Source: Pohlia nutans (taxonomy: Eukaryota > Streptophyta > Bryopsida > Bryales > Mniaceae). From it: 64,000 nucleotides of DNA. The position numbers were made by a program, and so were the translations under genes. Under the pieces are notes generated by a model, which was given only the letters and a program-made list of their open reading frames with translations, made no database searches and had not been told where the DNA came from. Numbering within the stretch: the first letter of the stretch is position 1; every line of letters begins with the position of its first letter. Of this stretch, positions 10,291 to 59,294 are shown in pieces. The DNA is taken from positions 1,674,001-1,738,000 of the forward strand of contig CM040094.1 of assembly GCA_022496805.1 (NCBI GenBank). Direction: 5' to 3'.

Positions 10291-10299
10291 GAAAAATAT

Positions 10300-36542: not shown

Positions 36543-36750
36543 CACCAAGTCATGAGCTCAATGGTTGGTTGTGAGTGGGTGTTTATCTCATATAGGTGGT
36601 CCGGGTTCGATTCCCGTTGAATTCGTTTGAGCGGATATGAGATATGCATGACTTGGTGCTGCTAAGTGAGCCTCGGCCGGCAGGAAATTTGTAACAACCA
36701 ACCAGCCCCGTACCCTAAACTGTGACAAGTGCTTAACGCGCTAACAAAAA
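36543..36750 (+). mobile_element. tRNA-derived SINE
   Basis: An A-box-like segment (GAGCTCAATGGTTGG, 36554-36568) and a consensus B box (GGTTCGATTCC, 36604-36614) are spaced as in a tRNA gene. The head is enclosed by a perfect 12-bp stem, CACCAAGTCATG at 36543-36554 with CATGACTTGGTG at 36647-36658, and a second inner pairing of ATCTCATAT with ATATGAGAT. A non-tRNA body follows, ending near a CTAACAAAAAAAC tract. It does not fold as a functional tRNA. RNA polymerase III transcription is inferred from the boxes. Confidence 0.7.
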
Positions 36751-37165
36751 AACAGTGGTCTTAACCACTAAACCTTTTATATATACTTGTTTTTAAAATC
36801 AAACACATACAATTAATCTTTTAAGGAAAACGGATCAAATATACAAAGAAGTAAACGTACAATGTAATAGTAAATATATTAATAAAATATAAATATTGCA
36901 CTTGCAATACGTATTTTTTTTCTAAATCAAAACACTTAGTCTTTGAAATGGAAATCTTCAACTTCAAAGTGATACACGCAAATATAAAATGAGAAATAAG
37001 TCAAAAGAAATCTACAACGTCTAATGAACTAGTCATAGTATAGACTCTATATCGCTTGCATCAAAGCGCAAAGTATCACAATAATAGTCAAATACACACT
37101 ATCACATAGACGTAGCAAGCAAGCCATACTCTCCATCGCCTCCAAAGGCTCCAATCAACAGCGGC
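36751..37165. other. Intergenic, 3' flank of the transposase-like pseudogene
   Basis: AT-rich, no gene seen. The boundary between AT-rich background and GC-richer coding DNA is abrupt near 37.1 kb. I found no repeat shared with the other side that would mark an element end. Confidence 0.4.
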
Positions 37166-40007
37166 TTAAGTAGAATTATACAAAACCAAACTTTGGTTAA
37201 TGACTTCGATCTGAGCTGATGGAATTTTGATCATGCACTCGACAGTACCTCGTTTAATCCTAGACTTCCATGCTGTCATCAAAGCATTTGTTTCTTCCCA
37301 AAGTGGAGGTTCGGTATCATCAACCTTCCAACGCAAACCTCTCGAGGTGTCCCATCCAGTGTAGTAGTCCTGGACATTTTGATCCCTTGATGATGGACGA
37401 AAGTATTGAATGAGGACACAGTTTGGTCTTTCTGGGTTACAGTTAGGATCAGACAACGCCCTAGCAATCCAAACTGGCCGAGTGTCACCATCTGCTGGTC
37501 GGATTGCAACGAAGTAGCCTTCATAAAGGTCTCGACCCACCCTGAATGATGGCAATGGACGACCCCGCATCTGCCCGACGTAAATGTCATCCTCTGCAAA
37601 TTCTTCCCGAAGGTCACCGTCCTCTGCGTATTGATCCTGTAGAATCACTTCAACCCGAGATGTGGGCCAGAAGCCGTCATTCAAAACATTGGATGGTTGC
37701 GGAGGCTCTTGAAGCGCTACTTTCACAGCCCGCCAATAATGAATCAAGTGCTCATAGCGTCTTCTGAATTCCCTGGTGAGGTCCTCATTGCACAAATTCT
37801 CCCAGTATTTGATAAATCCAGATATACCTTTGGAGATGTCTTCCACGTTCCTCATCGGACGCTGCTCAACAGGAATTGGCACTCCACGGGGTCACAAACT
37901 CCTACCTTCGGAATCCTCCTTCCACAATTTGATCCCTCCACTTTCTTTGGGCAACCAGTCTACGTCCGTGCAGAAAATCTTGTACTTCATTACCGGACAA
38001 CCAGTGGAGTCAAGGTAGAACTTGAACTGTTGTGCCTTTGTGTGCCCTACAAGTGGTTCATCTCCCTCCAGAATACTGCCTTCGATGAATCCTTTGAAAT
38101 CGGGCACTTCTTCGACAAGGTGTGGGATAGTGGGGATAGATTCCACATCCATGAAGGACTTCATGAGCAAAGGAATCGTAGGAAAGTTGTCCTTCCGCAG
38201 CAACATGCTCCACCTTCCAAACAACGCATCGATGTCATCGTGGGTGTGACCCACCAGCATAAAAGTAACATAAACTTCTCGAAATATTTTTTTTGCAATG
38301 AGGAGAGACCAAAAACAAAAAAACATATCTATTCTTGTTGTCCCCGGTAGCATTGTCCATGTGCACATGGAGAACGGGCGGCAAAGGAGTTGCTAGAGGA
38401 GAGGTTCCAGCGGTAGGACGCAACGATGGTTCACAAGTCTCTGCCCCCTTAAGCACAGCATCAAACAATGGAGATGACCTTGATCCCACAAACAATTCCC
38501 CAGATGCAAACTTAGGAGGCAACTCTAGATCCCGCAACAACTTGGCCATTGAGCCGATAGTGTAATATGAATCGTGCGAGAATAGATCCAGGCCGTAATG
38601 CGCATAGCGCACATCGCCGTGGCCATGTGCAAGCATACCAGTAACGGAAACGGGCAACTTCACAAGGTCATCAATCTCTTTACTCTTGTGGGAGAAAATC
38701 GGAGAAGCTGTTTTCGCGTGGTCCATCTTGTCATGCATGATCGTGAGACACTCGTGGGGGAAGTCTCTAGATCGGGTGCGGTTGGCGTAATAGTACTCTC
38801 GGTGCGCACGTGCAAGAGCCAGATGCTTGTCTAATCTCTTAGCCCAAAGCAATGCTTGCTGGGATCCAACTATTGATCCCCTCCTAAGAGAATGATATTT
38901 GTCGCACGTTGCGCACCGAGCGAAATTGTCACCTGGTTTCTTTGCGTCGAACTCACTGAAGGTGGATGTCCTAATCTTGCTCAAGTTTGAAGGCGAGACA
39001 TCCTTCAACCCAAACGCTGCATTCACCCTGTTCAGTTTGGGAATGGTGTCTTTCCACTGAAAGGTTGCCGGCAGAATCATGGAAACGACCTTCTCCCCGG
39101 ACTTGAGCGTCCTCGTGCGGTGGGGCATGTGGTCCGCGGATTTCTCTAGAATACATCGCAGCGTGGCGGTGGCTTGAACGGTGTGATTACGAGGCTTCCG
39201 GATTCCCGAATTTCCATGAGGATGTGCCTGCCGCCCCTGCATCGCGTATGTTTGATAACGGTAGAATGTTGCTTCGGGGACACCTGCAATATGCATCCAT
39301 GCTCGCACGCAAACATCAATACCTTCGATAGTCACAACCCTTCGGTTTTGAGAATCACGGTGAATCTGCCTGTGGATCTCCATCTTCATGTGGAATCTGA
39401 ACTGGAAAGAGGTGCCTTGATACATACGTTCGCGGAAGGCACGAATCTTATCCCTCGGAAAGGGTTGAACACAATTCTTGCTGCAACAAACTTTGCTGGA
39501 GACGGAGTTGATAGAGTCTTGAGTGAGAAGTTGCTGCGATTTGACGGAAGTCTCCCGGGGCGGATTCCTCACTGTACTAGTATATCTCGACGACCTAGCG
39601 GAAGAGGGCTGCGTGAGACTAGCTTGGTGACGGTTGTAGTTGTCGCGAAGTTCATGATCATGGAGGCTAGCTCCATTGATATGAACAAGCCGAATCGGCC
39701 AAGCCCGCAACGAGTACCTCCACTCGCAGGGGATGTCAACCTCGGAGTGACTGCGGACTATGTGAACAGCAACGTGAGTGTCTCCAAGTGGCCCGTTCGC
39801 ACCGAGGACAAGATCTTAGCTGACGCTATGACAAGTTCCGTCCCCAACATGCAAGCCGCCGTCATTGAAGAGAGCTACACGCTGAGTATTCCACTGACGC
39901 CGTGGAATGCCTTCACAATCCGGAACCTCCACGTCGAGTGTGTGTTGTGCCTCAGCTTCATCGTCCGAGGAGTCGAGTCCAGCAATGGACATGCGAGCAG
40001 GGTCCAT
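37166..40007 (-). pseudogene. Transposase-like protein (DUF7869-type), broken by two stops and one frameshift
   Basis: One long frame, about 945 codons from ATG 40007 to TAA 37166-37168, is disrupted three times. There is an in-frame TAA at 39816-39818, a 7-A run at 38317-38323 (T run on the coding strand) that shifts frame by one, and an in-frame TGA at 37892-37894. Between the breaks the protein reads through without loss of sense. The N-terminus is acidic (LDSSDDEAEA). A cysteine pair region (VCCSKNC) and an apparent zinc site (FARCATCDKYH) follow. LTIMHDKMDHAK, HMDNATGDNKNRYV and MLVGHTHDDIDALFGRWS carry spaced acidic residues like the RNase-H-fold catalytic core of DUF7869-type transposase-like proteins. 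I recall this family only from motifs. GC is well above the flanks. Some or all lesions could be assembly errors, especially the homopolymer. Confidence 0.72.
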
Positions 40008-40033
40008 GGCACCAGTACAGAACCTGAAGATAC

Positions 40034-41366
40034 CTGAAAGATGGCAAGCCCGAAAGTTAGAGGGTAGAACATTGGAGATGGCTCCCTATATACTTGATTA
40101 GCTCGAGGCGAGCTAAATCTCAAGAGGGATTCAGAAGATGAACATACTGAACTGGAGGGAATCGAAAGTGAAAGGGTGTATACTCTTGCAGTTTCGAGCG
40201 GAAGGCTATGGTCAATCATCGGATTTCGTTTAGGTCGAATCGACCTCATCTGTCTTGACCATGTATCAATGTAGGTCCGCTAGACCTAAATTATATCGAT
40301 CCAGAGCTGTAGAGTCTTAGATTCGATAATCATCTCAACTTAGGTCGGGTCGAGCTAACCTGATGTGAAGAATTTCCTCATCCATCCGGCTATATGATGA
40401 ATGTGCGAGGAGAGGTACCTCAGCTGAGGTCGACAGGATCTGACTTGAAATTTGGGGTGACAGATATGACTCACTGCTGGTTTTTCAATAGAAGATAACT
40501 ATCTGGGGTAGTTTAGGTCGAGTCGACCTCAAATGTTGATACAGCTGACCCGTACGGAAGGGTATCGGTGAGATGAGATTTGAATGCCCTATGAATTTAG
40601 GTTGCCTCGATCTAAATAGAGGAGAACAGATAGCTTCGAACAATATATAGAATGTTTACAGAAAGGAAGGGCTAGATATAGTTTAGATCGGATCGACCTG
40701 AATTAGGATGATTACATTACATGCCATATACGGAGTTCAGCTCGACCCGACGTGAAGAAGCAATAATATGCCATGTGATCAAGTCTGGCGTACTCGCTTG
40801 ATTTAGGTCGAGTCGACCTAAACCAGACGATAAATCTCCCGCATGAAACAGGCTACAATATGGTAAAGTAGGTGATACTTAGGTCGAGTCGACCTAAATT
40901 GGAGGATCAGTCTAGCTCCAGTACAATGCTAGATGTATGAAACGTTTGTGCCAATTAGGTCAAGTCGACCTAAACAGCAAGATGAATATCGCTCCGGTAT
41001 AATTATTAATGTAGGTATCGTTGGTGCCAATTAGGTCGACACGACCTAAATTGGTGGAAGGCTCTCCCTCGCTTAGGAAGCGATATAATCAGGTCGAGTC
41101 GATCTAATATGTCCCGTAATTTACGGCGACAATATCGGAAAGCAGCGGCATGTACATTCTGCATTTCGAATCAAAGGAACAGAAACTGCACTGTGGATTG
41201 CAAATGTAAGCTACTCCAAATACAATTGTCGGAAAGCATGGTTAGAAAGGCACCGTCCGAAGTATTACAATAACATAACAGTATGACATGGAACTGAAAA
41301 TGAAACCTATCGAAATCGTGCGCGCTAACCCTAGAAATTGAAGTTCTGGATACGTAGTGATCCCTT
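40034..41366 (-). repeat. Palindrome array in the probable 5' UTR intron of the transposase-like gene
   Basis: About 14 dyads related to TTAGGTCGAGTCGACCTAA lie at about 40098, 40229, 40272, 40341, 40434, 40512, 40596, 40682, 40739, 40802, 40879, 40954, 41030 and 41089. Those at 40802 and 40879 are nearly perfect 21-bp dyads with one central base. Spacers are unique and about 55-90 bp long. On the minus strand a strong donor (CCG|GTAAGG, intron from 41366) and an acceptor (CTTTCAG, intron to 40034) bracket the array, so it probably forms one 1.33-kb intron upstream of ATG 40007. A nearer alternative acceptor ends at 40024. Confidence 0.85.
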
Positions 41367-41368
41367 AC

Positions 41369-41700
41369 CGGAATATGTCGTGGACACAGCGCCTCTTGAC
41401 ACGATTCTACAGCCTCAGCCCGCAACTACACGCACTCTCCGTAAAAACCTAAGCAAAAGAAAATCTTCCCTTCAACCATGAGAGAGTACAAGAACCGGTG
41501 TGGAGGGAGTGCGCGAACGGAGGAGCATGAGCACGCAATGAAACGAGAAAAGGAATATTTCAGTCGCACTTCAAGATTTACAGACAATATGGCGGGAACG
41601 ATGTGGCGGGAAGAGGAAGGGAGAATTTGAACCGTCGTTTCTCATCCACTAAAAAATCGCAGCGACCACGAAGTTCGGTGCACTTTACAACTGTGGAGGA
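41369..41700 (-). promoter_or_regulatory. Putative 5' leader and promoter region of the transposase-like gene
   Basis: GC-richer sequence extends upstream of the donor at 41366-41369 to about 41.65 kb, then abruptly becomes AT-rich. It contains no long frame and is best read as 5' UTR exon plus promoter of the minus-strand gene. No convincing TATA box was fixed. Confidence 0.4.
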
Positions 41701-44467
41701 AGAAAGCTTACTGAAAATATTCGCGACTATAATAGATTTCTATACAGTACTTGAATACTTCATTCAAATATAGATTCCATCCCTATGTAACAAGAACATT
41801 GGAAACGGAAAATTCTTTAAAAAATAAACATATATATTTTTTTTTTTAAATTAAAAAAAAAATTAAAAGAAAAAAAAAATTACGGCGTAAAAAAAAGATC
41901 GGAAAATTCTACAGTGAGACATTGCTCTATATTAAATTGTAGATCATAAAAATAATATTATTCAAAATGCACGTTGTTGGTTTTGTCGATAGTACAAACG
42001 TACGGTTGACAATAAAATAACCACCTCATGGAGGAACCTTCCTATAAATTTCATGTACGGTTTTAGGGTATTTAATCAAGTGCTACGAAGTTATTTTGCA
42101 TATTCTAGTATTCACAATTTAGTTTTGGTATATTCTAAGAATATCCCTAGAATATTTTCTAAATTAATTTAAAACATCCTATATTACTTCTATAAATTTA
42201 TAATATTTATCACAAATGAAAAAAGGACACCCAATATTTGTTCTCATATAGTTATCAAAATTCTCGACATTCAATCCCCCGAGGTAACCACTAAACATAT
42301 TGGTAAACATCATCAGAAACTACTATTTATAACTGAGGGGTATTTCCGTTAAAATTAAATTTAACGTGTTACTTTATTGTCTTAATATTTAGTTTAAAAG
42401 CATTAATCACGTTAATTACAAAATACTGAATAATATATTGAATAGATATATGGAAAATTTAAATACATACAAACATTTTAGAGAATATTAAGTGCAAATA
42501 ATTCACATGTAATTATACATTAACATGAACGTGTAGGTAGTGCAATACATATTTGGCGGTATTAAAGTACGCAAATTATCAAATAATCGGAACATTAGGA
42601 ATAGATTTAATACAACTGCCAAAAATCTTGAAAAATCTATAAATATTATTAAAACTAATTATGGGCGTTACAGTCTTACAGATACCATGCCTGCAAATAT
42701 ACATTTGGTAATTACCAAAGGCTAGATGTCTAGCACACATATTGAAATGACTTTGATATAAGTCACACATTCATTTGCGCGTCTCACGGATCAAAGTGGT
42801 ACCTATATCAACCCATAATTTTCCTAATCCTAATTCTTGCTATATTCGTATTTTTATTGTCAGTACTGCAAATTCTGTAAATGAAAATTAATGAATATTA
42901 GTATTATACGGTGATAGCAGAAGTTTAGGGACTCTATTAAGTAACTAAAGTCATAAATGTCGTATATTAAGTAGCTTCTAAATGCATGATCATAATTAAA
43001 AAACAAGTTGTAATAAAACATATTTAATTTGTGAAATGCATGATTATTACATTGAAGCCATGCAAGTGTTCAGGATAACTTACTATTTTTTACGTGTAAA
43101 TAACAACAGAAATCGCAAATTGTTGTACTTTATGGGGCCTCAATCCTAAATGTCAAGTGATTATGATCTAAAAGCATGTTAAAAAGAAATGCACAAGTTG
43201 TAAATAAATTTTAATACGCCAAAAGCATTAAATTACTCTACCCTAAACTCTAAGTAACCGATGATTATCTGGACAAAATAATTATCAGATATGTTAAACT
43301 TCATCCGCTGATAACTTCTACGATTCACGTCCAAATATTAAATACAAAATCATTTTAATCTCATCTCCATGCAGTCTACTTCGTGAAACCAAAATCGTTA
43401 AAAGCATGACTAAATTGTAAATATTTAATATTTCATGACTTTCGAATGATACAACTCTATATCGCCTATCAAATAATCTAGAAATTTTGTGAAAATTAAG
43501 ACATTATTATTAGAATCACAAAGGTCTAAATTGTAGGTTTAGGGTAAAATGATCCACAATTAATATATTATAAAACGTTTCAGGTAATATATTAAAGTAT
43601 GTGTCAATGAAATCTTCATGATTCTACATTTAATACATTGATTGAACCACTATAGGATTACTTGTTTCGAAATACTTTCATAATTTAAATACATTGATTC
43701 ACGCCATAGTCCCTCTCAATAGCTTTCCAAATATATATGTCACTCTTTCAAATGATGAAGTACGTGTATGTTACAGATGGATGAATTATGAGAAATCTTA
43801 AACTTCATCCGCTCATACTTGCTACGATTCATCTTTGAATTTAAAATACTAATTGAAGCAAATTATTTTCATATAATCTTCATGTAGTGTGAATTATTTT
43901 GAATTGAGATTTGTATTCCAGGTTAGCTTCATGTGTGTGTGATCTGATCTAAAAGGAAACAATAATTTTTGAAAATATTATACCTCATTTTGTGTTCCAA
44001 TGTTGCATCCATAATTATGAAGGTTTTACAGACTCTAGTAAAATTGTTCATTAGAGAACTACCCAAACGGACATAGATGAGGGCATTTAGGGGCTACAGA
44101 ATTTGGAATTAAGATTGAAGTCAAGATTGGTCCAAAAGATACCTTCTATTCTAAAAACTCAATATAATAGCAATGATCATAAAAGATTGTACTTCTTCAC
44201 ATTTTGTAAATAGAATGTTTTAAAACACTATGACCATATTCTGATATTCAAGTTTGTGTATCTAAGAAAACTCTATTATGACCCTAATAAAAGAAACGAA
44301 TTATTTCCATACAGCAGTAGAACGTGCGTTCTTGTCTTCCTATAAATTATAACTATTAAACAAAGCTCCGAAAAGTAAATAAATCCCGATAAGGTGTATG
44401 AATATATGTATATATGTATATATATATAGACCTATTTTTCTACATATATGTATATATTCTATTATAT
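41701..44467. other. AT-rich intergenic with a truncated family B element
   Basis: 43908-44098 resembles the central and end parts of family B (GTTAGCTTCATGTGTGTGTG, CATTTTGTGTTCCAATGTTG, then GGGCATTTAGGGGCTA in place of GGGGTTAA). Homopolymer A/T runs lie at 41820-41880. No gene seen. Confidence 0.45.
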
Positions 44468-44935
44468 ATAGTACGTGGAAGTCAGGGTCAGCACTTTCAT
44501 GTCGAATAATTAATAAAAGTTAAAACAGTGAAGGTCGGCACTTTCAAAGGTAAGTATTATGAAAATTGGCTATTGACAGATATCAATAATTATTTTCTGC
44601 CCCCTAGTAAACGTTTTATAATTATATATTTTTCTCTGCCATTTTTGCCGAGTGTCATGTTCTCATCCAGTTTATAGTGTCTGTTTTTGACGACTTTTTG
44701 TTGACTTCATTTTTGATGATACCGACAAAATTCTTCCTATTAAATTTTTAAATTATATATAATATATATAAATGTATATATATGCAGATATGCTTGTATA
44801 TATACATGTTCATATACAAGTTTTTGCTGAGTGGCCGTAGCCCTGCCCGTAGTCCTGACCGTTGCCCGCTGCCCAGTGGGGTCGACTTAATATTTTATTT
44901 TTATTTTTTCGGCATTTTTATAGGGTATTATGTTC
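44468..44935. mobile_element. MITE family T, copy 2
   Basis: The left end GTACGTGGAAGTCAGGGTCA and internal AAGGTCGGCACTTTCAAA, ATGTTCTCATCC and TGTTGACTTCATTTTTGATG match the inverse of 46095-46440 and parts of 22367-22711. The right boundary is uncertain. Confidence 0.5.
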
Positions 44936-44948
44936 TACCAACCCTACC

Positions 44949-44950
<2 letters not shown>

Positions 44951-45010
<60 letters not shown>
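44951..45010 (+). repeat. (AC)n(AT)n microsatellite
   Basis: About 15 AC units run directly into about 14 AT units. Shorter related AC/AT runs occur at 45719-45760. The long open frames across it arise from the dinucleotide repeat and are not genes. Confidence 0.95.
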
Positions 45011-45011
<1 letters not shown>

Positions 45012-46094
45012 AATTTTCGATGCTCGTTGCCCGCTGCCCAATGTACAATTTTCTGGCCTGCTGCCTAAGGTATTCGTCCCTCTCAGGACTAGGGTCTCAA
45101 TCTTGGTTGGGTTTTTGCCCGTTGGCCTCGTTTTGTGTCTCTAGCCTTGATTTTATTGTGATAGGTAGAGAATTTAATCTCATGTCCATGCAGTCCACTC
45201 CATGCAAACCGCTAAAATCTAAGTAGGCTTTCTAAAGTGACTTGCATAGAGATCATCCAACTGAAGGTAGGGTCCCAAAAATATACGTACTAATAATTAT
45301 ATATGTACTAATATAGGTATATATAATGTACATATATATATACGTACATATACATGGTAGATTTTTTTCCTAGTATATATATAGTACGTAGAAGGCAAAG
45401 TCAGCACTTTCAAAAGTAAGTATTTTAGAAAATGGGTATTAATAGATATTAATAATTATTATGCGGCTGCTAAACATTTTATTTTAAATTTTTGTCTACA
45501 ATTGGTACAAAATTTAATAGGCTTTGTAAGGTGACTTGCATAAAGATCATCCGAGGTTGTATGAGAAAGTTATAGAGTTTGGAATCTGTTCGTGATCCAG
45601 TTTCAGGACGCTGGGACGTTCAGGAAATAATGTAGATATTATAATAAGTATTTCAATGAAATTATTTGAACAACACAATAATGTTCAAATACATATACCT
45701 GTTATATATTTTTGTATATATATATACACACACACACACACAGAGATATATATATTTACAAGAGTTCGCTGCACGTAGGCCTCGTTGCCCGGAATGTAGG
45801 ATGTGCTAAAACACGAACTAAAATGACAGTTGCCAATGTATGACATTTTTGAGTAAGAGCTCATGTAATAGACCAAATTTAACCCTTAAAGGTCCACAAA
45901 GCCCATTCCAACCAGTCTTACAGAACAATATTCCATTGTATTTGACATGATTATATACCTCTTATGGGTTTCAAGAAAGAAAAAGTTAAAATGCAGGTCC
46001 ACATGATTTTGAATAATGAGCTATTGGAATTCCAATTTGAAACCTTTCTTTTTACAACAAATGTCAACATAGTATACGCCAATGTGTCTACTAC
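45011..46094. other. Intergenic with element fragments
   Basis: 45520-45630 matches 57150-57255 (GATCATCCGAGGTTGTATGA, GATCCAGTTT, GGACGCT), the 3' part of a TTAA-type element, here with a degraded end. 45878 begins TTAACCCTTAAAGGTCC like the 246-bp element, but I found no partner end. 45370-45470 is a family T fragment. No gene. Confidence 0.45.
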
Positions 46095-46440
46095 CACACC
46101 TCGACGGCAGGTTCGGTAGATAATAATTCCCCAAAAAGATGCCAAAAACATTAATAACCTTAATATTATCTATTTTGTCAAAATCAACAAAAATAAATTT
46201 AGAAAAAAACCAAACATAAACTCAAAAATAAATCAAACTTATAACCCAATTTTCAACAGTAGTGGACGAAAACATAACACTCACCATAAAAATAAAAATA
46301 AAACCTTTTAGCAAACGTGAAAAAATTAAGTGTTTACTATTAATAGCCAAATTATTAATAATTACTTTAAAAAGTGCCAACATCCACTCTTTGAACTGTT
46401 ATTAATTATTCTATAATGAAAGTGCCGTCACTTTCAAAAG
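46095..46440. mobile_element. MITE family T, copy 3
   Basis: Begins near GGCAGGTTCGGTAGATAATA-ATTCCCC and ends GAAAGTGCCGTCACTTTC. It shares AATAATTCCCC-AAAAA, GACGAAAACATAACACTCA and TATTAATTATT with 22367-22711. Diverged; termini approximate. Confidence 0.5.
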
Positions 46441-46446
46441 TACATA

Positions 46447-46861
46447 TTAACCCTTTAATTAAGGTCCCGATTCAACACTGTTTTCAAAGATTCGTTATAA
46501 AATGTTTGATAAAAAATTAAAATGGAGTTGATGTACAAAGCAAAGTTATAAATGTCAATGTGAAGATAACATCTATATGGTTGGATTCATCATATTTATT
46601 ATTAATATTTTTTAATTAATTTTGCAAGGTTTTCTCTGGAAATTCAATTAAAAATCCAAAATTAACATTACAAAATTAAAAAATATTGTAATGACATTGG
46701 AATTACATGCACTACAAGATGCTATGGTTTTCACTATTTCATTCTACTTATTATGGAAAATCATGTTTATAGTCTCACTTTTTGAATTAAGAATGAAACT
46801 TGACATAAACCACTTTTGCTATTTTTCAAAAACTCTCAATATCTTATCTGGAAGATCCATA
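46447..46861 (-). mobile_element. Family A TTAA element, truncated by the 12-bp minisatellite
   Basis: It starts with TTAACCCTTTAATTAAGG at 46447 and follows 3384-3932 colinearly up to GGAAGATCCATAC. There the C-rich repeat begins, so the last roughly 130 bp of the element are missing. This marks the left border of the three-gene cassette as younger than the element. Confidence 0.75.
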
Positions 46862-47338
46862 CGCGTGCCCATGCCCGATGCCCATGCATATACCCGTGCC
46901 CTGTGCCATACCCGTGCCCATACCCATGTGCCGATGCACTGTGGCCATACCCGTGCCTTGTGTCCATACCACACCCTTTCCCCATACCCGTGTACCCATG
47001 CCTTGTGCCCATACCCGTGGAGTGCCCATACCCTGTGCCCATACCCTATGCCCCGTGCCCATACCCCCGTGCCCATACCCCCCTGCCCATACCCTGTGCA
47101 CATACCCTGTGCCCATACCCCTGTGCCCATACCCCCGTGCCTATACCCCCCTGTCCATACCCTGTGCACATACCCTGTGCCCATACCCCTGTGCCCATAC
47201 CCCCGTGCCCATACCCCCCTGCCCATACCCTGTGCACATACCCTGTGCCATACCCTGTGCCCATACCCCCGTGCCCCGTGCCCATACCCCCGTGCCGATA
47301 CCCCCGTGCCGATACCCCCGTGCCCATACCCTGTGCAC
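46862..47338 (+). repeat. 12-bp C-rich minisatellite (CCCATACCCCYGTG type), about 480 bp
   Basis: About 38 units of roughly GTGCCCATACCC with variable C runs fill the interval. A longer 60-70 bp higher-order unit repeats at about 47080, 47150 and 47220. The period is a multiple of 3, so several frames stay open on both strands; these are not genes. The G-rich strand has runs of G3-G6 every 6-9 bases, suitable for G-quadruplexes. It ends just upstream of the leader of the ParB/methyltransferase-like gene. Confidence 0.92.
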
Positions 47339-47883
47339 ATTTGTCTCTCTCGATCCGGCTAGGGTTGAACGCGTCGCCATTTTTTCCATCTCTCTTCGTT
47401 TCTGCGCCTGCGTCGTGTGTGTTGTTCTCGCCGTTTGTGTGTTGTTCTCGCCGTTCCTTTTGTGCGTTGTAGTGTAGGGTTTCTGGGGTTACTTTCTCCG
47501 TCGTCGTTCTCTGTTTGGAACTCGTTTTTTGTCCCTCTCGTTTTTTTCCGTCGTTTCTTCTTTCTCTCGTGTTGTTTATGTCTGTGTTGTGTCGTCGTCT
47601 CTCGTGTCAGTTAGAAGCTTGAGGTTGGAGGGGCTGCGTCTACCCTGAACCTTGTAGTTTAGAATTGCAGGAGCTACCCTGAAGCTGATTCGTTTTCTAG
47701 GGAGGGGAAGCACGCCTTGGATCGAGGGAGCACGTCTGTGACGGAGAAGGAGCACGTCTGTAAAAGCACACGGAGCGCGATTGAAGAGGTAAAGAGATCC
47801 TAAACCCTAATCCCTAAAAACGCCTTGCTTACATTTTGAGAGTTCCTGTTATCTTGGTATTTTGATTCTTTTCCTTCTTGAAG
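47339..47883 (+). promoter_or_regulatory. 5' leader with telo-box of the ParB/methyltransferase-like gene
   Basis: This is a GC- and T-rich region before ATG 47884. GTGTGTTGTTCTCGCCGTT is directly doubled at about 47417-47456. A donor-like GAAGAG|GTAAAG lies at 47789. Just after it, AAACCCTAA (47802-47810) is a plant telo-box, a motif common near the start of growth-related plant genes. Whether an intron is removed before the ATG is uncertain. Confidence 0.4.
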
Positions 47884-50800
47884 ATGAAGGACTTTGTCCA
47901 GAACTTCGACGTATTGAAGGCGAAAGTGGAATTGCATCAAAAATCAATGGCACCTGTAAGCGTGTCCCTCGATAACCGGAGCCAGGGGGGGAGTGCGGGA
48001 TCCATGGGCAACTTCTCGCCAACTGCAAGACCGCAACACAGCAGAGGCAAACGCAAGCCGAGCATGCCTCTGACACCTTCTGGAGCACTACGCCAAAGCA
48101 ACCTCGCCTCCTCCTCCTCAAAGAAGAGGCAACCTGCAGAGAAGACTGCGCCTGAGGCTGTCAACGAGGATAGCTTGGCGTCCGCTGTGACGGAGTTACC
48201 GGAGCCCCTGGTCGGCAACACCAAACCCGACTACGCGCGCTCGGCGGAAGCGTACAGGACGTTATGGACGTCTTGCACCGACGCGTTCCTGTTCAACGTC
48301 GACGATAAGAAGTCAATCCCCATTGAACAGCTAATCGATGCGCCTCCGCACATGAACATCAAGAGTTACGAGCCGGAACATGCAAAAAAGATTATGACCT
48401 TCCTTCTGAGCATGCCAGATAGAAGCACGAAGCAAACTCTGTGCGTAATGCCTGTCGACCAGGCCACTAAACCGACTAGCTGGGACGCCATCAAAGATGG
48501 TAAGTTCTGGCTGATCAGTGGGCAGCACAGCGTCAAAGCCAGTTACATGATGCGCGATGAAGGGATTGACGAGAAAGACCTCAAAGACTTCGCTTCATGG
48601 AACTGCTTTGTCGTGTGGACGGAGAATAACGAGAAACTTCGTCAAATTTTCGCCTACTACAACCGTGTAAACCACTTCGGCGCCATCAAGCCGTCATGGG
48701 CGACAAACATATTGGGAGCGCGGCAAGTATGGATAAATCTCAACCGCCCCAAGAATCCAAAAGAACTCAAAGATGTGGGAACGGCTTATCAAGCCTCCAG
48801 GACGAAAGAGGCCGAAAGAAACAAAGCAAAATTTAGGGTAATGTTCAGATCGAGTCGACCTAAAACACTTGGTAGTCCATCCCGTAGAGTAGATCCGAGT
48901 CGGCTTCATGTTAGGTCGACTCGACCTAATACGCTAGATCTGTGTCCTGTCTCGTCTACTATCTTGCCATCCATGCGCTCATCGAACATTTGTTTGTTTA
49001 GATCGAGTCGACCTTAAATCACTGACTAATAGCTAACGGTGTACGTACCCCCCTGCAGGAGTTTCAAGCTGCTATGAGGCTGCGGTTCTCGATGCTCGAC
49101 GTGGCGCAGGCGCAGAGAGACGCAAAGAAAAGTAATGCCGAAGCGTTGCTTGACATCCACAATGAGCTGAAACTGATCACTGCGCCGGACGACGTGTTTG
49201 CTCTTTGGAGCGGAGTGATATCGAGCGCAGGTGCCGGCGAGCTTTATGACCCGGATAGTGATGGGAAGTTCTGTGAAAAGGCGAACTGGAATCCGGAGAG
49301 TGGGAATCTCACGCGCGAGTTCTTCAAGTGGTTGGGGAATTTAACCTACGATGACCTCGCGAAATTGGCCAAGCATATCCTTCATTGCGATAATCCCAAG
49401 TGGACCAAGGACTACCCCAAAGTCACGATTAAGGCCATATCCTCGGTTCTAGACAGGTGCTATTCCACCAAGGAATGGGTGGAGAGGAGGAAGCGGAAGC
49501 ACCTTGTGAAACGGGAATTGCACAATATCGATCGTTCTCTCGGGCTCTTCAATCCGGCGGGGGAATTAGTGCCCGAGAAGTGGAGGCAGTTCAAGAAGGA
49601 CTACAACGTCACAAGGGCGACCATGAATGTCCTCCTCGAGCGGCCGGGAGAGCAGTACTTCAAAGAGGCCAAGCAGGTGAAGAGCAAAAATAAGAAGACC
49701 GCGGACATATCACCTCACGCCCACGAATTCTTCAAAGTCTTCCTGGAAAAACGAAAAGAATTCGTGAAGCCGTCTGGTAAGGCTCAGTACCGGCCATACG
49801 ACCCGAAGGAAAACATTCACTCCGAGTGGGCGGACGGCGTATGGACAGACGACGAGGCCAAATTCATGAGATTGGGGGTCATCGACTTTAGGAACCTCCC
49901 CGGGGTGGAGCAGAAAGAGAAGTCATGTACGGGCATGCCGTACTTTTACGAATTCATGACCTCTCTGAAGAGGAGAGGTGAACTGGACTTCGATCAAGTG
50001 CCTGCGTGGCTCTTTATCTGCGCCGACATGGAGGAGATGCACCAGGCAGTTCATTTTGCGGAGGGCGACGAAGTCCTCCACAAATACAAGAAGAAATATG
50101 CTACCTACCTTCCGGCTAAGAACGAGCGTCTGTACGATTTACCGGCGAACTCTAAGAAGGCGCGAGCAAAAGTCGAGCTCCTCTTCTTGCAAAACCCCGA
50201 ATTACCGATGGTGCGCATGATCCCCGACGAATTCATTGCGCCAGACACTACGGTATATACGAAGCCTCGGGCGTACGATGAGCTGCAGTACCGCCTGTGC
50301 AGGGGGGAACTCAGAATGGAGTTCTACCTGTCGCTCATGAAGTTGTTCACGACAACGGGGTCGAATATTTTTTCCGTCTACGCTGGATCCAAGATCACTT
50401 GTGCTGCAGTGGTACGTAGCGCATGACTCGATCTTTCAGCTCGGGTCGACCTAAAACATTTGTAGTGTTAGATCGGGTCGACCTAAACCTGCGGTTGGCA
50501 GTCCTTCTCTGTAGGTTCAGATCGGGTCGACCTATTCCGTTGTAGGATTAGCGTCCAATTCCTAATCATGTGTACATTCAGGTCGCATCGACCTAATCCT
50601 TTCGTGTTAGCTCAGGTCAACGTAAACCTGTCGTGTTGGCTCGAGTCGACCTAACCTTCACAGTTTTCCCCCCTCTTCAGCTCGATTCAACCTGAATCTA
50701 GTCCTCTATGCTTGCTTGTCTCTCCGTCATAATTGAACCTGCATGTCTGTCAATTTTTAGGTCGAGTCGATCTAAGTCTTTCTTGTTGCTCCATTTCATC

Positions 50801-51753
50801 GACCTCTAAGTCAGTTCATGACTGCCGTGTTATTTGTGCAGATGTGTTGCGTGAACAGCTATGCTGTCGGTCCCAATACGAGCATAGAATATTGGACTCT
50901 AATCGCAGAGGACGCCTTGCAGCTGGACAAGGCGGACTTCCTCGACGACAGATACAAAGTGAAGGTTGGAGGGAATCAGGGTAGTCCTGCTGCGAGAGCA
51001 GAGCCCTCTCGATTGAAGAGGAAGTTGCAAGTTGAGGATGACGATGAATCCTCCTCCGATGATGACGACGACGACGACGACGACGACGACGAGGATTATC
51101 AAGCTCCTCTGGAGACCCCCGGTACTTCATCCGCGTCCTCTGGCCGTCAGCTCAGAAGTCCTTCCTCCGAGCGGAAGTCCAAGAGGAAGAAACGTGACTC
51201 TTCCAACAAAGACATTTTGAAGTCGTTGGTTGCCACGGTTCAAGTGCTTGCTACTCAGACCGCGGAAACGAGATCAAACCAGGCCGACTTCCAGAAGTAC
51301 CTCTTGGGTTTGCAGCAGCAGCAGAATAATTTCCAGCTGACAATGCAGGCGATGATGGAACGCCTTCCGCAACCTCAACCTGTTGCCATAATGGCCCCGC
51401 CGCCATTGCCTTCTGTACCTCTGCTGCTGACTAATCATCCGTCGGGGTCAATATCTAGCGACGACTCTGCTCCACCGGCGCCGTCGGCTGTCCCTGCGCC
51501 TCCTCCGCCTCCACCGTCGTACTCTCCTGTCGCTGCACCTCCCCCGCTTCCACCGATGTCCCCGCCTGTCGCTGCGCCACCCCCGCCTCCCCCCGCTTCT
51601 GCGTCTGCTCCGTCCACTTCGCCGGCTCGCCGGGAAGTGTCATCAGGCGCTACTGGTGACGACAGTCTGGGATTCAGCGAACCTACTTGCAGTGCAAATG
51701 CGGACTCTGCCGTATCGCCCGACACTGACGCTGCAGCAAGTGGTTCCCAATAA
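47884..51753 (+). CDS. ParB-like domain plus degenerate DNA methyltransferase-like protein (1072 aa, 3 exons)
   Basis: Exons 47884-48837, 49059-50411 and 50842-51753 are all phase 0 with GT/AG borders. Residues about 140-270 look ParB/sulfiredoxin-like: SIPIEQLIDAPPHMNIKSYE, then FWLISGQHSVKASYMM in place of the usual GxHR box. Residues about 330-720 form a Lys-rich middle. Around the exon 2/3 junction, TKPRAYDEL, then SNIFSVYAGSKITCAAV and TSIEYWTLIAEDAL mirror the C-terminal motif X/I region of beta-class amino-methyltransferases (DPFAGSGTT, then IGIE). Here the glycine motif reads AGSK and no D/SPPY box was found, so catalysis is doubtful. The C-terminus has an acidic run from (GAC)n, an NLS-like RKSKRKKR and a Pro-rich tail. 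ParB-methyltransferase fusions are typical of bacteria and phages. GC-rich; introns carry palindromes. Function unknown. Confidence 0.7.
48838..49058 (+). repeat. Palindrome cluster in intron 1 (3 copies)
   Basis: Dyads lie at about 48845, 48911 and 48998. The middle one, TTAGGTCGACTCGACCTAA, is a perfect 19-bp dyad. The flanking exons contain none. Confidence 0.88.
50412..50841 (+). repeat. Palindrome cluster in intron 2 (about 8 copies)
   Basis: Copies lie at about 50436, 50468, 50518, 50579, 50613, 50640, 50680 and 50757, several with a better conserved right half (GGGTCGACCTAAA). Spacers are unique, 25-80 bp. A further degenerate copy (TTAGCTCGACTCGAGTTGA) lies at 51778, just after the stop codon. 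Confidence 0.85.
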
Positions 51754-51982
51754 TCACTCGATGTCATTTGTATAGTTTTAGCTCGACTCGAGTTGATTTG
51801 TATCATAGTTTTTTGTAGGTTCTTTGTATAGAAGGCTGTAATACATAGGATCTTCAACTGCTGGTTGAGATGACAACTTTTGACATTTTTCCATCGACAT
51901 TTTTTGTACTTATAATTTTTGACCTTATTTTAATTTACATACTTCTCACTCGGGAATTTATGTTCATCTATTGTCATCGCAG

Positions 51983-53225
51983 GCTCCCCCCGTGCCCACA
52001 ATGTGCCTCATTCACAATTACCTCATACTCTTCGCCCATCCACACAAACTACTCGGGACCGTAAGTCCTTGGAGCCCGATCTCGCCTCGCCTGGAGTCCT
52101 TTCTTCTCGTGTCGACCCTCCATCCTCTCAAACACTTGTGTATGCGCGTAGACTGCAAGAGGATGCGCAATTGGATGAGTGTACACGTACTTCGGCCTCC
52201 CCTCCTCTTAATGTCGCGAGCGCAGCACCTTCCGCAGCCGCGCCTGTGGTCAGTGCAAAGTACATCGAGACCTCCGGCCTTCAGGTGCGTTCCATACACT
52301 TCGTAGTGATCGTTTTTTTGGTCTCCCCACTCGCCTCGACTGTTTACCGTTTTCATTACGATGTCGTCCGAAATGTGTCAGTTTAGGATCGTAACTGGCT
52401 GCACATTTGTCTGTCCGCTGTCGCCAGGGATCCGGTCGTCCTCTTTCTCGTGGAGGTTCTTCGGAGGCGGTCGTTCGGTCGCCTCAGCTTAGACCGCCCA
52501 AAAAATGGCTCAATGTCGTCCTGGACCTGAACGGAATCCTCTGCGTCTGTGAGGATTTGAAATCCCGGACTACGCGTACGCCTTTTAACGACTACTCGGC
52601 GCCGCACTCAGCCATTCTCCCGACTGTAGTGGGGCCCAAAGCAGTATACGTGCGTCCACTCTGCTACTCATTCCTCCGTGAGCTCACCATGATCGCGGAC
52701 GTTACTGTCTGGAGCTCCATGAAGAAGTCTACCACTGACTCGGTAGTGCAGTATTTGTTCCGCGGCATCCAGCTCCCTTCCCTTGTGCTTGGCCAAGTCT
52801 CGTGCGAGACCCTCAAGTGTCGGGATAGGCACGGCAGGGTGTCCACCTTCAAAGTGCCTGGCACTGATAAGGACTTGTTCCTTAAGAATCTGGACAAGCT
52901 GTTCACAAGTCATGGTGGCAGATTCACGGCTGCAAACACCATTGTAGTGAACGACAGCCCCAATAAGCACATTCTGAATGAGCCCCAGAATGTAGTCCTC
53001 CCAGACTCTTGGTCCTACGTCGGGGCCGGTGCGCGCGATCATTTTCTCATTGATGTTCTCCTTCCATGGTTTCAGCGTCTACATCGCAGTCCTGGCCCAG
53101 ATTTGGTGTCGTTCAGCAGGAACGATAATATTGGGCGGCGTATGCTCTGCGACGAGCCCGACCCTCGGCTGTACAACCTCCTCATGGAGGCTGTACGCGC
53201 ATCCCGTAGTGTCACTAGTTCCTAG
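51983..53225 (+). CDS. FCP1/CTD small-phosphatase-like HAD protein, plant LDLNG type (5' exon not found)
   Basis: Exons 51983-52284 and 52428-53225 join in frame; the first starts with two bases completing a codon from an unseen upstream exon. The second exon holds the NLI-interacting-factor/FCP1 homology domain: WLNVVLDLNGILCV (motif I), VYVRPLCYSFLREL, VTVWSSMKKST (motif II), then TIVVNDSPNKHILNEP (motif III region). The classical DxDxT nucleophile motif reads D-L-N-G-I, so the second Asp is Asn, as in the plant LDLNGLL subgroup; phosphatase activity is therefore uncertain. The first exon is a Ser/Pro/Arg-rich, probably disordered region. It lies 230 bp downstream of the ParB/methyltransferase-like gene on the same strand and is GC-rich like it. 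A shared or alternatively spliced 5' exon is possible. Confidence 0.75.
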
Positions 53226-53548
53226 TTCATTGTACTGTACTATAGCTGGACGCCCTTCTCTTAGTGATTTAGTTGTTTTAGACTACTCGGTTCGATCTTT
53301 GGTCGCCTTGACTGATATGTATAATTCCTTGTAATTGTAATATACCTTTGTAATCACAGCATTCTCGGTTCAGTACTTTGTGAGATGAGTTTTATGAACG
53401 CTTGCATGCTATCCCTTTAATATAATATGTCTTCGTCGCACCCTTGTTCAATTAGCATCATTTTCCTCCTCTTTTTTCTACTGCTTGGAATATTTTGTTT
53501 CTTTGCAATGCGCTGCTGGGATTTGATCTCATTGCTAATTCTCTTCAG

Positions 53549-54357
53549 GCAAGGTATGCCGCTGCCGATCCATCCCACGGTCCTGGCCTCCAATGCACAG
53601 TGTCCACCGATTCTATCATGGACTACGGCCAGTATGCTATACTCAGTAGAGGAAACTTCTTCTGCTCCGCAACTACGGCCCAGTCAACCATGGACTTTTC
53701 CACCAAGCCAATTCAACATGGTGTAGTGGACAGCCCCCCTAACGGTGGTACTCGTCCTGTGCCCAATTCCTCACCTTCTCCTTTGCGGTCACGAGAACCC
53801 TCTACTTCTCATCGCTCGCGTTCTCCGTCTGATAGGGTGCCTCAAAAAAAGCTTTATGAAGACGCTGCACACCCAATTAATTCTCTTGAGGTACGAATAC
53901 TTTCTTTCCCCGCACCATTATTTCGCTTAGACGGTCTTGCCTTGATGTATACTTGATGTAGATTCCCTTGTATTTGCAGGGTTCCGACATTCCCAAACCA
54001 TGCAAGTCCTCTGCTACTGTAAATGCTTTCCGAATGACTCCTGCGATGCTGTCATCAGACCCGCCTCCTCTAACCCAAGCCCGTGTTCATGTGCCCTCTC
54101 GTGCGCCCTTGCGTACTCGTCTCCCTTTAGTGAATGCGGGTCTTCAAAAGACTAAGTCGCATGACAAGTTCAGAAAGAGATCCGCTCCGGTTCGAGATGA
54201 GAGGGAGGAATTGAGACTGGCGCAACTGAGGCGTGAGATTGCGCAACGGCGATTGTCGATGTATCACTTCGATAGTCGTGGTCATGTGATGTTGAAGGCA
54301 GTAGCTGAACTTCAGTTGAAGGCCGAAGCTGAACTGAAGAGTCGATCGCAACCCTAG
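53549..54357 (+). CDS. Unknown Pro/Ser-rich protein with C-terminal coiled coil (at least 239 aa, 5' end not found)
   Basis: Exons 53549-53890 and 53980-54357 are bounded by TCTTCAG, GTACGA and TTTGCAG. They are in one frame and end at TAG 54355-54357. I do not recognise the family. The first exon is Ser/Pro/Arg-rich (PSPLRSREPSTSHRSRSPS), resembling a disordered or RS-like region. The second ends in a charged helix (EREELRLAQLRREIAQRRL, then AELQLKAEAELKSRS) likely to form a coiled coil. No start codon lies in frame in the first exon, so an upstream exon between 53226 and 53548 or farther is required. As third gene of the cassette, on the same strand and with the same elevated GC, it probably travelled with its neighbours; this is inference. 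Confidence 0.5.
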
Positions 54358-57259
54358 ATCCGCTAGGCATTCTATTTGTGATTACTATAGAGACTTATAA
54401 AAATACGTGGAGCTCATGTTTTTATATAGGATTTTACGCTTCGCTCATTCTTTTTCCTAGCTTTATGAGACATTATCAAGATTGGATTACCGTCCTGCAA
54501 TACAAACACCCAAAAAATGTATATTCATTTTATACTTACTATAAATAGATGTTACTTCTGCAATCTTTTATTGCACACTTCTATTAAATGTACTATATTT
54601 GATCTTCACTTTGTCCATCTTCTATTGTTTTAACCTATATTTCGAATGGTTATTGGTTCAATTTGGGTTTAATTTAGACTTTTTGAACTCTCATTATTTT
54701 GGAATCCTCTCATTTTAATGAATATAATGTTTAGAGCACAACAATAGGACAACATCCATACCGTTGAGTTTTTGAAAAATGCTCTAAATTTTTTAATAAT
54801 CAATTTATAAGAATTGTTTTCGCAAATTCATAAAAAATACATGTTTAGCCATTTTCACTTGGAATCAAGTACATGATAGGTCAAAAGCGTTGGTTTTATA
54901 TGGTGGTTACCTTGTTCTAGTTAGAGTTACTCTTATTTGATCAGAAACCTACAGATTCCATTTCCGGCGGATTTTCAAAATTGTGACAATTTAAGATGCG
55001 GTCACTTTGAGGGCTTTATAGGAAAATCAGTAAAAAAAAAGTTTCAAATCCTCCTTTAGAAAAGGCTGATCAGTTTCAATATCTACAAGGGGAAAAAATC
55101 ATGCCATAAAATTGTTGTTTTTGCAAAAGTTATGGACGTTTAAATTTTAAAGAGGGCTAGCTAATTTTTATTTTTTTAAATCTGAAATTTCAGAGTTAAA
55201 TTAGTTCTTTGTGATTTGAATAGTCGAAAGGAACAAAAATTGAGTCACATGGGACCATTGACACAATTATTTCCACACTACACTTACCCGGTCAAACCTC
55301 ACCAATTCCTCACATTTAAATTATATTATATTTTTTTGGTATTTTTCTTATATAAGTTATTGTTAAGCCAATTTTCCTTGATTATTTTATAATTATTTAA
55401 ATAAATATGAATTTTATTAAAAATTCAAAGTTTGTTTCTTATAAAAATAACAGTAATTACAAAAATGCTTAAAATAATATGAAACTTTTAGGGGATATGT
55501 AAATAATAGTGACGAACAACAAGATGTATGTGAAATGCTTCTTGTGCTTGCATAAATAGAAATTCAATGGGTGAAAGCATGGTAAATTGAACCACTTGTA
55601 ATTCTTGTAAGGAAGCAACAATGCAAGGACCAAAAATTCATTAGATTTTTATTTTTTGTAAAATTGTTTTTGCTAATAATATAAAAGATACAATGTTCAA
55701 CAAATTCTAACAAACAAAATTGCAAATTTAATGTTTAATAAGTATTCATGTGTGTTATAGTAAGATTTAAGTAGTTAAAAGTGGAAAAGTAGTTCCGACC
55801 AAATTAAAAAGTAGATATAAAACAAGTTGAAATTGCATTAAATATCTTTTTTTTCAAGATTATATTTCTTTGAAGCTCTCAAATGGACAATGAACCTAAA
55901 GAATATGTAATTTATATTCATATTTAACATGATTCAATTCACCATATTTGTTCCCGAATTTTGTTTGACATTTTTATTCAAGCTTTACTTTTAGTAGCCA
56001 TTTTTTAATAATTTAATTTGAAACTTTGGATTTAAGTACCTAATAGGACAATTAGACAATGGAAGGTGCAATCAAATTATAACTTAAATATGTGATTTTT
56101 TAATAGTAACTTATGCGAGAATTTATGGCCTTTGACCATGAAAAGTGTAATTTCAACATGACAAATGACTTTATTGATTCAGTTTACCGTGCTTTCACCC
56201 AATTGAAAAATATTTTCAACATTGTATATTAAAAATTTAGGATTTTGAGCTTTAAAATGATGTAAAATACACAATTTTAACAATTTGGAGAATGGTAAAA
56301 TTGGATTAGAAAGTAAAAGGTAGCCCCCACACTTTCTTAGTTGGAACTGCTTTCATTTGAAATTAAGAACTGGATGAAAATCAACATTTGACTCAAAAGC
56401 GATCAAATATAGCTCGATGGAGCTCTTGGGCTTTTAGGAGTTATGTCCCAAATGACCAATTTAAATTGACAACATTTCTATAGTTAGTGCAAGCATGTTC
56501 TTAGAAGTTGTCTAACATATTTGACACGACAACACACATCTAATATGACGTCAAATTGGAAAACGTGTTAAACATGACAACCCAACACTATAAACTTTTG
56601 ACGGTTGTTACTCCCTTCGTCCCACAAAAGACCATTAGATCATGATGTCAACTTAAATTTGGTCTCAAAATAAAACTACAATTTCAAGTTGTACTCATTC
56701 ACTACAATCAAGTTTTGCATACTCTTGATAAGTGCTTCAAGGCATTGCAAACAATGCTGGAAGTTTATTCCATGGATTTTGAATATTTTGATCATGTATT
56801 TTGATCATGCTAAAAATAAATTAGTGCATGGATTTCAATTTTGTATTATAATACACTTTCTGGCAGTCAAAATACTCCCTCTATACTCACTCAATCCATG
56901 AGTCAACATACTTCCTCTGTAATCATGGGATTAACTACTAAACATACCAATCTTTTGTACAAAAGTAGATTCTAGCCTCAAAAGTAGATATTAACATAGC
57001 TTAGATGTACATGAGGTGTATATGAGAAGACCATTGCAAGTATAAATCTACCCAACAAATTTGACATACTTGCAATTGAAGGCCTCTCCAATATTATCAA
57101 TAGCTCTCCATCACAAAAGATTTATTGTTATTGGTAAAGAATTTGAAAGGCTTTCAAAGGTGACTTAGATGAAAATCATCCGAGGTTGTATGAGAAAGAT
57201 ACAAGGCTTCAAATTTGTTCATGATCCAGTTTTTGGACGCTAGAACGTTTAGGGGTTAA
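54358..57259. other. AT-rich intergenic; ends in a TTAA-type element end
   Basis: GC drops abruptly after 54.4 kb. No gene is seen. The right end at 57256-57259 (GAACGTTTAGGGGTTAA) closes a TTAA-type element whose 3' part (about 57150-57255) matches 45520-45630; its left end was not located. A similar end-like GGGCTTTTAGGAGTTA occurs at about 56430. Confidence 0.45.
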
Positions 57260-59039: not shown

Positions 59040-59294
59040 AATACAAAAGTTTGTTGAACTACCCAACCATCTTTTACTAAAGATGGCTTTGATTCTACAT
59101 GAGATTACAATTCCTGTAACGATTCTAGCTTCCAAGGGCAAGCAATGTATACTTTCAAAATGATAAGGTAACGCTTTTAAAATATCCAAAACGATACAAA
59201 ATGATCCAAATCATAAAACTCTAGTTCTCTAAAAGATTACGAAATATGTTTTAAATTCTCAGTTGTAATGAATAAGGCACCCTCATTTATATAT

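What the first reader, a model, noticed from the sequence alone, without database searches (positions are those of the whole stretch)
40098..50841. A family of about 25 intron-confined palindromes, TTAGGTCGAGTCGACCTAA, shared by two opposite-strand GC-rich genes
Dyads of about 19-21 bp recur about 14 times in the probable 5' UTR intron of the minus-strand transposase-like gene and about 11 times in both introns of the ParB/methyltransferase-like gene, with one degenerate copy after its stop. I saw no clusters in exons or in the AT-rich DNA between. Spacers are unique, so this is not a tandem repeat, and many copies keep the dyad although the bases vary (for example paired AGATCG/CGACCT changes). 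That pattern fits selection for protein binding, methylation or RNA hairpins in introns. No feature class I know describes it.
Basis: partly seen in the sequence, partly recalled or inferred. Interest (0 to 1): 0.92.

Follow-up and report, generated by a model that had tools for sequence, protein, structure and literature searches.

The report
Address palindromes of moss jumping genes
The repeated palindromes are not a property of introns: they look like address tags of a family of very large jumping genes in a moss, found in their introns and also in tiny gene-less jumping DNA, with spellings that differ between families.

Summary
The two genes are not independent host genes: both lie inside one DNA transposon (window 36240-54731, inverted terminal repeats, 4-bp target duplication TAGA) of what is almost surely Pohlia nutans.

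In the genome GGTCGANTCGACC occurs 1538 times (reversed control 3). The 50 sites that the search listed, all on contig C1, fall in this transposon family: five large copies, and two families of gene-less miniature elements that kept the ends and the palindromes. In large copy c1c, 38 of 39 sites lie in four predicted introns (3.6 of 21.7 kb). Sites are mostly more conserved than the intron around them.

Arms do not covary within an element and G-U pairs are not favoured, so RNA hairpins are unlikely. A sister lineage in the same genome, and relatives in another moss, use AGCTCGANTCGAGCT in matching places.

Best reading: recognition sites for an element-encoded dimeric DNA-binding protein that marks, regulates or de-silences its own element, like En/Spm TNPA or VANDAL VANC sites. 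Binding is inferred, not shown.

The parts
36240..54731 (.). Large DNA transposon holding both genes (18,492 bp; this copy looks degraded)
   Evidence: inverted repeat 36239-36268/54703-54732, 28 of 30; same ends in other genomic copies and matching 4-bp target duplications
36236..36239 (.). Target site duplication TAGA, left
54732..54735 (.). Target site duplication TAGA, right
36240..36268 (+). Terminal inverted repeat, left
54703..54731 (-). Terminal inverted repeat, right
37166..40009 (-). DUF7869 (PF25273) transposase-like gene, open frame interrupted in this copy (one uninterrupted frame in copy c1c)
40024..41368 (-). Predicted 5' leader intron of the DUF7869 gene with 14 palindromes (40098-41107)
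   Evidence: splice-like CCG|GTAAGG and CTTCAG|G read from the sequence; sites
40803..41049 (.). Four palindromes at 76-bp spacing (more at this spacing in other copies)
47884..51753 (+). Gene with amino-methyltransferase fold in exon 2 ('ParB-like' N part by eye only): exons 47884-48837, 49059-50411, 50842-51753 (predicted)
   Evidence: leader intron and N-terminal exon present in copy c1c were not found here
48838..49058 (+). Intron 1 with 3 palindromes (48845, 48911, 48998)
50412..50841 (+). Intron 2 with 8 palindromes (50436-50775, up to 5 mismatches)
51778..51796 (+). Degenerate palindrome after the stop
52395..53225 (+). FCP1/NIF phosphatase-like gene of the element
   Evidence: PF03031, 1.1e-13; relative in L003
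53962..54357 (+). Small ORF near the right end

Best explanation
The palindromes are recognition sites (two half-sites TCGA-X-CTAA around one free base) for a dimeric DNA-binding protein encoded by the transposon. Shown: in the places examined they belong to one transposon family, sit mostly in predicted introns of the large copies and inside miniature elements without visible genes, are mostly better conserved than their surroundings, and differ in letter between element lineages in one genome. Inferred: a protein made by the element, most likely the methyltransferase-fold protein whose own introns hold most of the sites in c1c, binds them in trans. Binding would regulate or de-silence the element and make miniature elements visible to the same machinery. 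Sites accumulate in introns because these are the places inside the transcribed genes that tolerate them. Two CpGs per site would make binding open to host methylation. Which of mobilisation, autoregulation or anti-silencing it serves is not decided.
For: Genome counts 1538 (GG type) and 1104 (GC type) against 3 and 2 for the reversed patterns. The 50 GG sites listed, all on C1, form 12 clusters in this family: 5 large copies, 3 MITE1 (one truncated), 4 MITE2 (one without recognised ends). MITE1 (558/559 bp, 6 sites) and MITE2 (403/404 bp, 2 sites) have AAC..GTT ends and 4-bp duplications GTTA, GAAC, AGTT, TTTA, one imperfect AAAT/AAAA; MITE2 has at least 40 places (40 of 146 candidates scored, 7 of them lacking the ends). 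Site identity against surrounding intron, window against c1c: intron 1 51/55 against 84/140; minus intron part 1 112/131 against 419/600; part 2 18/19 against 594/714; intron 2 52/76 against 130/217; coding exon 2 1050/1352. Discrete class: the same 39 sites in c1c at 3 and at 4 mismatches with X free. Half-site letter X: sister element G 37 of 38, other moss G 32 of 32, MITE2 C 12 of 12, MITE1 C 20 of 24. No arm covariation, as half-sites would behave.
Against: No binding data. The window and c1c have no sites within 2.9 kb of their ends, nor in the 8 kb between the site clusters of the two genes where promoters should lie, unlike TNPA sites. In the window lineage X is mixed (28 C, 8 G, 8 T of 44), and in intron 2 the excess conservation is small and many window sites face gaps (57 of 133 columns). 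In introns of the plus gene the 5' arm is the worse one in 16 of 19 untied sites (c1c, sign p 0.004), in the minus gene in 3 of 5, which simple dimer binding does not predict. MITE2 ends resemble those of the GC-type element (AACACG..TTATAATGGGA) although its palindromes are GG-type, so ends and spelling do not simply go together.
Confidence: 0.65

Rival explanations
1. Intronic RNA hairpins: the palindromes fold in the pre-mRNA and control splicing or make small RNAs.
For: In large copy c1c sites are almost confined to predicted introns (38 of 39), on both gene strands; the 5'-arm asymmetry follows transcription in the plus gene. In L002/L003 pairing extends a little beyond the core (k10 13 of 16, shuffle mean 8.7, reached in 71 of 2000), and in 18 MITE sites k12 pairs in 17 (shuffle mean 9.3, 0 of 2000), though these are close copies.
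Against: No covariation of arms in the window or c1c; departures are not biased to G-U. Palindromes are kept in miniature elements in which I saw no intron or gene. In L002+L003, 5 of 16 sites lie after the stop codon of the plus gene.
Confidence: 0.08
2. Sites for a host protein (transcription factor, silencer or chromatin factor) captured by the element.
For: Conserved and present in several element lineages; two CpGs per site suit a methylation-sensitive host factor.
Against: Two element lineages in the same genome use different letters at the same position (C in 12 of 12 half-sites of MITE2, G in 37 of 38 of the sister element), which a single host factor does not easily explain; the 50 listed GG sites are all in this element family (with 41, 42, 44).
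Confidence: 0.14
3. Neutral hitch-hiking repeats: palindromes spread within the element by duplication (76-bp and 51-bp arrays) with no function.
For: Local tandem arrays exist; conservation is measured between few copies and is weak in intron 2.
Against: Higher identity than the intron around them in the other blocks, matching places occupied in 38-44% identical relatives, and different spacers in MITE1, MITE2 and the large element.
Confidence: 0.13

Closest known systems
VANDAL (MULE) transposons and VANC anti-silencing proteins, Arabidopsis
   Same: Short motifs recur in noncoding parts of the element including introns, form tandem repeats, differ between related elements, and also occur in an element outside the family (PMC5735166: abstract and found passages; PMC10398659: found passages with the abstract).
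   Different: VANC motifs are 8-9 bp; the word palindrome does not occur in either main text; VANC21 also marks intergenic and terminal regions. Here the site is a 19-bp dyad, absent from the 8 kb between the gene clusters in c1c; the encoded proteins differ, and neither binding nor demethylation has been shown.
En/Spm (CACTA) TNPA motifs (recalled; papers only seen in a listing)
   Same: Many copies of an element protein's motif, also kept in non-autonomous derivatives; methylation-sensitive CpG in the motif.
   Different: TNPA motifs are subterminal; here the sites of large copies are internal and mostly intronic. Ends AAC..GTT and 4-bp duplications differ from CACTA ends and 3-bp duplications.
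Sola superfamily DNA transposons
   Same: 4-bp target duplications, sizes that can pass 15 kb, present in Physcomitrella (PMC10741241, passages).
   Different: No reference Sola transposase was available, so DUF7869 could not be placed; the passages seen say nothing of intronic palindromes.
ParB/parS
   Same: Element-encoded protein next to palindromic sites.
   Different: The ParB domain was called by eye; Pfam shows none in the window ORFs or in the P. patens relative. Letters differ from parS (recalled).

Membership tests
TIR DNA transposon (class II) | Terminal inverted repeats and target site duplication of fixed length | tested here: met
   window TAGA, c1c ATCT, c1d CCAC, sister element TAAA; MITEs GTTA, GAAC, AGTT, TTTA, one imperfect; ends of c1a and c1b seen on one side only
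TIR DNA transposon (class II) | Encodes a transposase | tested here: inconclusive
   DUF7869 found with 312 relatives, one of the 120 listed named transposase by its source; structure model too poor (pLDDT 51)
Sola superfamily | 4-bp target duplication | tested here: met
   against PMC10741241
Sola superfamily | Sola DDD transposase | not testable with these tools
   no Sola reference sequence at hand; original paper not held
VANDAL/VANC anti-silencing system | Lineage-specific motif in noncoding regions of the element | tested here: met
VANDAL/VANC anti-silencing system | VANC protein that binds the motif and removes methylation | not testable with these tools
   no binding or methylation data; no VANC domain (DUF1985, recalled) among the Pfam hits of 10 window ORFs
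En/Spm TNPA system | Motif copies in subterminal regions of the autonomous element | tested here: not met
   nearest site 3.8 kb from the left end and about 2.9 kb from the right end in the window copy and c1c
RNA hairpin element | Compensatory changes between arms | tested here: not met
   window and c1c
ParB/parS | ParB domain by profile | tested here: not met
   no Pfam ParB hit in the window ORFs or P0080

The most novel reading that the evidence does not exclude
Giant moss transposons run a sequence-specific self-recognition system that arose apart from VANC: a methyltransferase-fold protein encoded by the element reads a CpG-bearing palindrome written many times into the introns of the element's own genes, protects or de-silences only elements that bear its spelling, and changes spelling together with its sites, so that sister lineages coexist in one genome without cross-activation while gene-less miniatures steal the tag.
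Probability: 0.27. Interest if true: 0.82.

Novelty: new variant of a known kind. Interest (0 to 1): 0.62.

Why it matters
If the element's own protein reads these sites, mosses hold a second, independent case of transposons that defend themselves with a private, re-spelled address, after VANC in Arabidopsis. The intron placement, the two spellings in one genome and the miniature elements give natural controls for testing how such protein-site pairs co-evolve. It also warns that strange intron motifs in GC-rich genes of AT-rich genomes may be transposon parts.

Tried and rejected
Viral contigs: the exact palindrome found one contig, read as a chance match in coding-like DNA (L001); the protein search found no relatives among 133 candidate stretches. 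Arm covariation within the element and G-U bias: looked for, not found. A transcription-linked 5'-arm asymmetry that first looked general over unique sites holds only for the plus gene when counted per site. DUF7869 structure: model too poor to search. Most rows of the fold comparison cover residues 238-451 of exon 2; the rest is untested. Literature: DUF7869 0 papers; searches on moss intron palindromes, ParB moss transposons and bryophyte subterminal palindromes listed nothing that I recognised as this; they cover only an open-licence library. Branch-point and recursive-splice readings of the motif (CTRA, YAG-GT) were considered without a test of their own; the letters vary at the needed places and the miniature elements show no introns. 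Planned genome counts for an AGATCGANTCGATCT control, for MITE1 copies and for the left end of the element did not complete, so the letter X was not surveyed beyond G and C types and the MITE1 copy number is unknown.
Full report
WHAT WAS CHECKED. With up to 3 mismatches the motif TTAGGTCGANTCGACCTAA matches 19 times in the window, only at 40098-41107 and 48845-50775, and 0 times in 100 shuffles.

WHERE IT LIES. The window is G000:C10:1674001-1738000 of a 697,796,988-bp genome whose contig C1 has 52,153,166 bases. Pohlia nutans is published at 698.20 Mb with a largest scaffold of 52,153,166 bp (PMC9247546, passages), so the host is almost surely this Antarctic moss. An inverted repeat of 30 bp (28 matching), 18.4 kb apart, frames both genes. 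Other genomic copies end at the same places, and the duplications are TAGA (window), ATCT (c1c) and CCAC (c1d). So both genes belong to one transposon, 36240-54731.

GENOME DISTRIBUTION. GGTCGANTCGACC occurs 1538 times, the reversed pattern 3 times. The answer lists 50 sites, all on C1; I fetched 20 stretches around them. They form 12 clusters: large copies c1a (8 sites), c1b (10), c1c (9), c1d (6) and L027 (3), of which 10 kb were fetched; MITE1 in L020, L021 (4 each) and truncated L022 (2); MITE2 in L024, L025, L026 (1 each) and in L023 (1), which aligns to MITE2 over 348 bp but showed no recognised ends. That is 50 of 50. The other 1488 sites were not classified. In 62,230 flanking bases (window, c1c, c1d) there is 1 match at up to 4 mismatches.

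MINIATURE ELEMENTS. MITE1 is 558/559 bp, with duplications GTTA and GAAC and six palindromes. MITE2 is 403/404 bp, with AGTT and TTTA and one imperfect pair AAAT/AAAA; one palindrome starts 52 bp from one end and the other stops about 51 bp from the other end. Their ends, AAC..ATATTC(A/G)TTA, resemble those of the large element. MITE2 has at least 40 places (80 rows, both strands of a self-complementary element; 40 of 146 candidates scored; 7 of the 40 match only about positions 45-395). I saw no gene or intron in either. This is the strongest argument that the palindrome is a transposon signal and not an intron signal.

ANATOMY IN LARGE COPIES. Copies c1a-c1d carry 39, 42, 39 and 37 sites, the window 23, at up to 4 mismatches. 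In c1c, 13 sites lie in the DUF7869 leader intron, 17 in the leader intron of the plus gene (not found in the window copy, nor is the N-terminal exon), 3 in intron 1, 5 in intron 2 and 1 after the stop: 38 of 39 in 3,613 of 21,659 bases. None lies in an exon or in the 8 kb between the two clusters (5031-13059). With the variable letter left free, 39 sites appear at 3 and the same 39 at 4 mismatches. Introns are predicted from splice-like sequence only.

CONSERVATION. Window against c1c, sites defined from the window: intron 1 51/55 in sites against 84/140 outside; minus intron part 1 112/131 against 419/600; intron 2 52/76 (57 further columns gapped) against 130/217; minus intron part 2, one site, 18/19 against 594/714; coding exon 2 1050/1352. 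Comparisons with c1a, c1b and c1d, which are close to c1c, look alike. The array part of the minus intron was left out. The excess is clear in intron 1 and in part 1 of the minus intron and small in intron 2.

HAIRPIN OR BINDING SITE. Pairing of arms k2-9 equals the shuffle mean in the window (154 of 184; 153.4) and c1c (269 of 312; 269.1). G-U cells are not favoured over A-C cells (window 10 against 15; c1c 15 against 22). In the 16 sites of L002+L003 pairing beyond the core is slightly above shuffles (k10 reached in 71 of 2000, k12 in 89, k13-16 in 141), and in the 18 MITE sites k12 is far above them (17 of 18; 0 of 2000), but those are close copies of two families. The 5' arm is worse in 16 of 19 untied plus-gene sites of c1c and 6 of 7 in the window; in the minus gene 3 of 5 in each. 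I cannot explain this beyond a half-finished switch of half-sites.

SPELLINGS. AGCTCGANTCGAGCT occurs 1104 times against 2. One cluster of it, fetched in part, is a sister element at C1:8556294-8581954, duplication TAAA, with DUF7869 about 47-48% and exon 2 about 38-40% identical. Its sites stand in matching places: upstream of DUF7869, upstream of and between the exons of the plus gene, and after exon 2; one site lies after the DUF7869 gene and one (L031 7163) was not assigned; its introns were not modelled. L002 and L003, moss-like contigs in a MAG labelled cyanobacterium, carry TTCAGCTCGANTCGAGCTGAA: of 16 sites, 10 lie in predicted introns of the plus gene, 5 after its stop, 1 further downstream (my reading), so strict confinement to introns does not hold there. 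Letter X of half-site TCGA-X-CT: sister G 37 of 38, L002+L003 G 32 of 32, MITE2 C 12 of 12, MITE1 C 20 of 24, window C 28, G 8, T 8 of 44, c1a-d C 190, G 96, T 29, A 1 of 316. Peptide tails that run into intron 2 suggest GC-type sites in several other relatives and a TTTGGGTCGATCGACCCAAA type in some of the most distant ones; codon degeneracy and my choice of tails make this a lead only.

READING. Half-sites without covariation, dense in noncoding parts of genes of the element, retained by miniatures, re-spelled by lineage: this works like TNPA or VANC sites. VANC21 binds YAGTATTAY in introns, intergenic and terminal regions of VANDAL21, and the motif is thought to co-evolve by tandem repeats (PMC5735166, abstract and passages; PMC10398659, passages). 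The present family fails one TNPA feature (subterminal placement) and has not been tested for the defining VANC activity, so it is filed as a new variant of a known kind and not as a member.

Noticed in passing
window 46447-46862, 3384-3932, 18949-19498, 59294-59841: An interspersed repeat with about 84-94% identical copies, one of them inside the spacer of the transposon.
   Followed up: no
window 46880-47345: A roughly 14-bp GC-rich minisatellite (GTGCCCATACCCCC) just upstream of the leader of the plus-strand gene.
   Followed up: no
window 36590-36620: A tRNA-like B box (GGTTCGATTCCCG) inside the left end, SINE-like; ARAGORN finds no tRNA in the window.
   Followed up: partly
L002, L003: Two contigs of a 'Synechococcales' MAG (AVDCRST_MAG81) encode moss-type transposon genes with introns: likely moss contamination.
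   Followed up: partly
L028 1279-1744 (C1 near 140952): A roughly 76-bp-spaced array of GC-type palindromes near an FCP1-like fragment.
   Followed up: no
C1:29768729-29769133 (L024) and relatives: MITE2 is a long imperfect inverted repeat over its whole length, so its transcripts could form double-stranded RNA.
   Followed up: no
P0201, P0211: DUF7869 relatives on a 110.5-Mb contig of Ceratodon purpureus with locus tags KC19_VG, probably the V sex chromosome (tags, meaning recalled).
   Followed up: no
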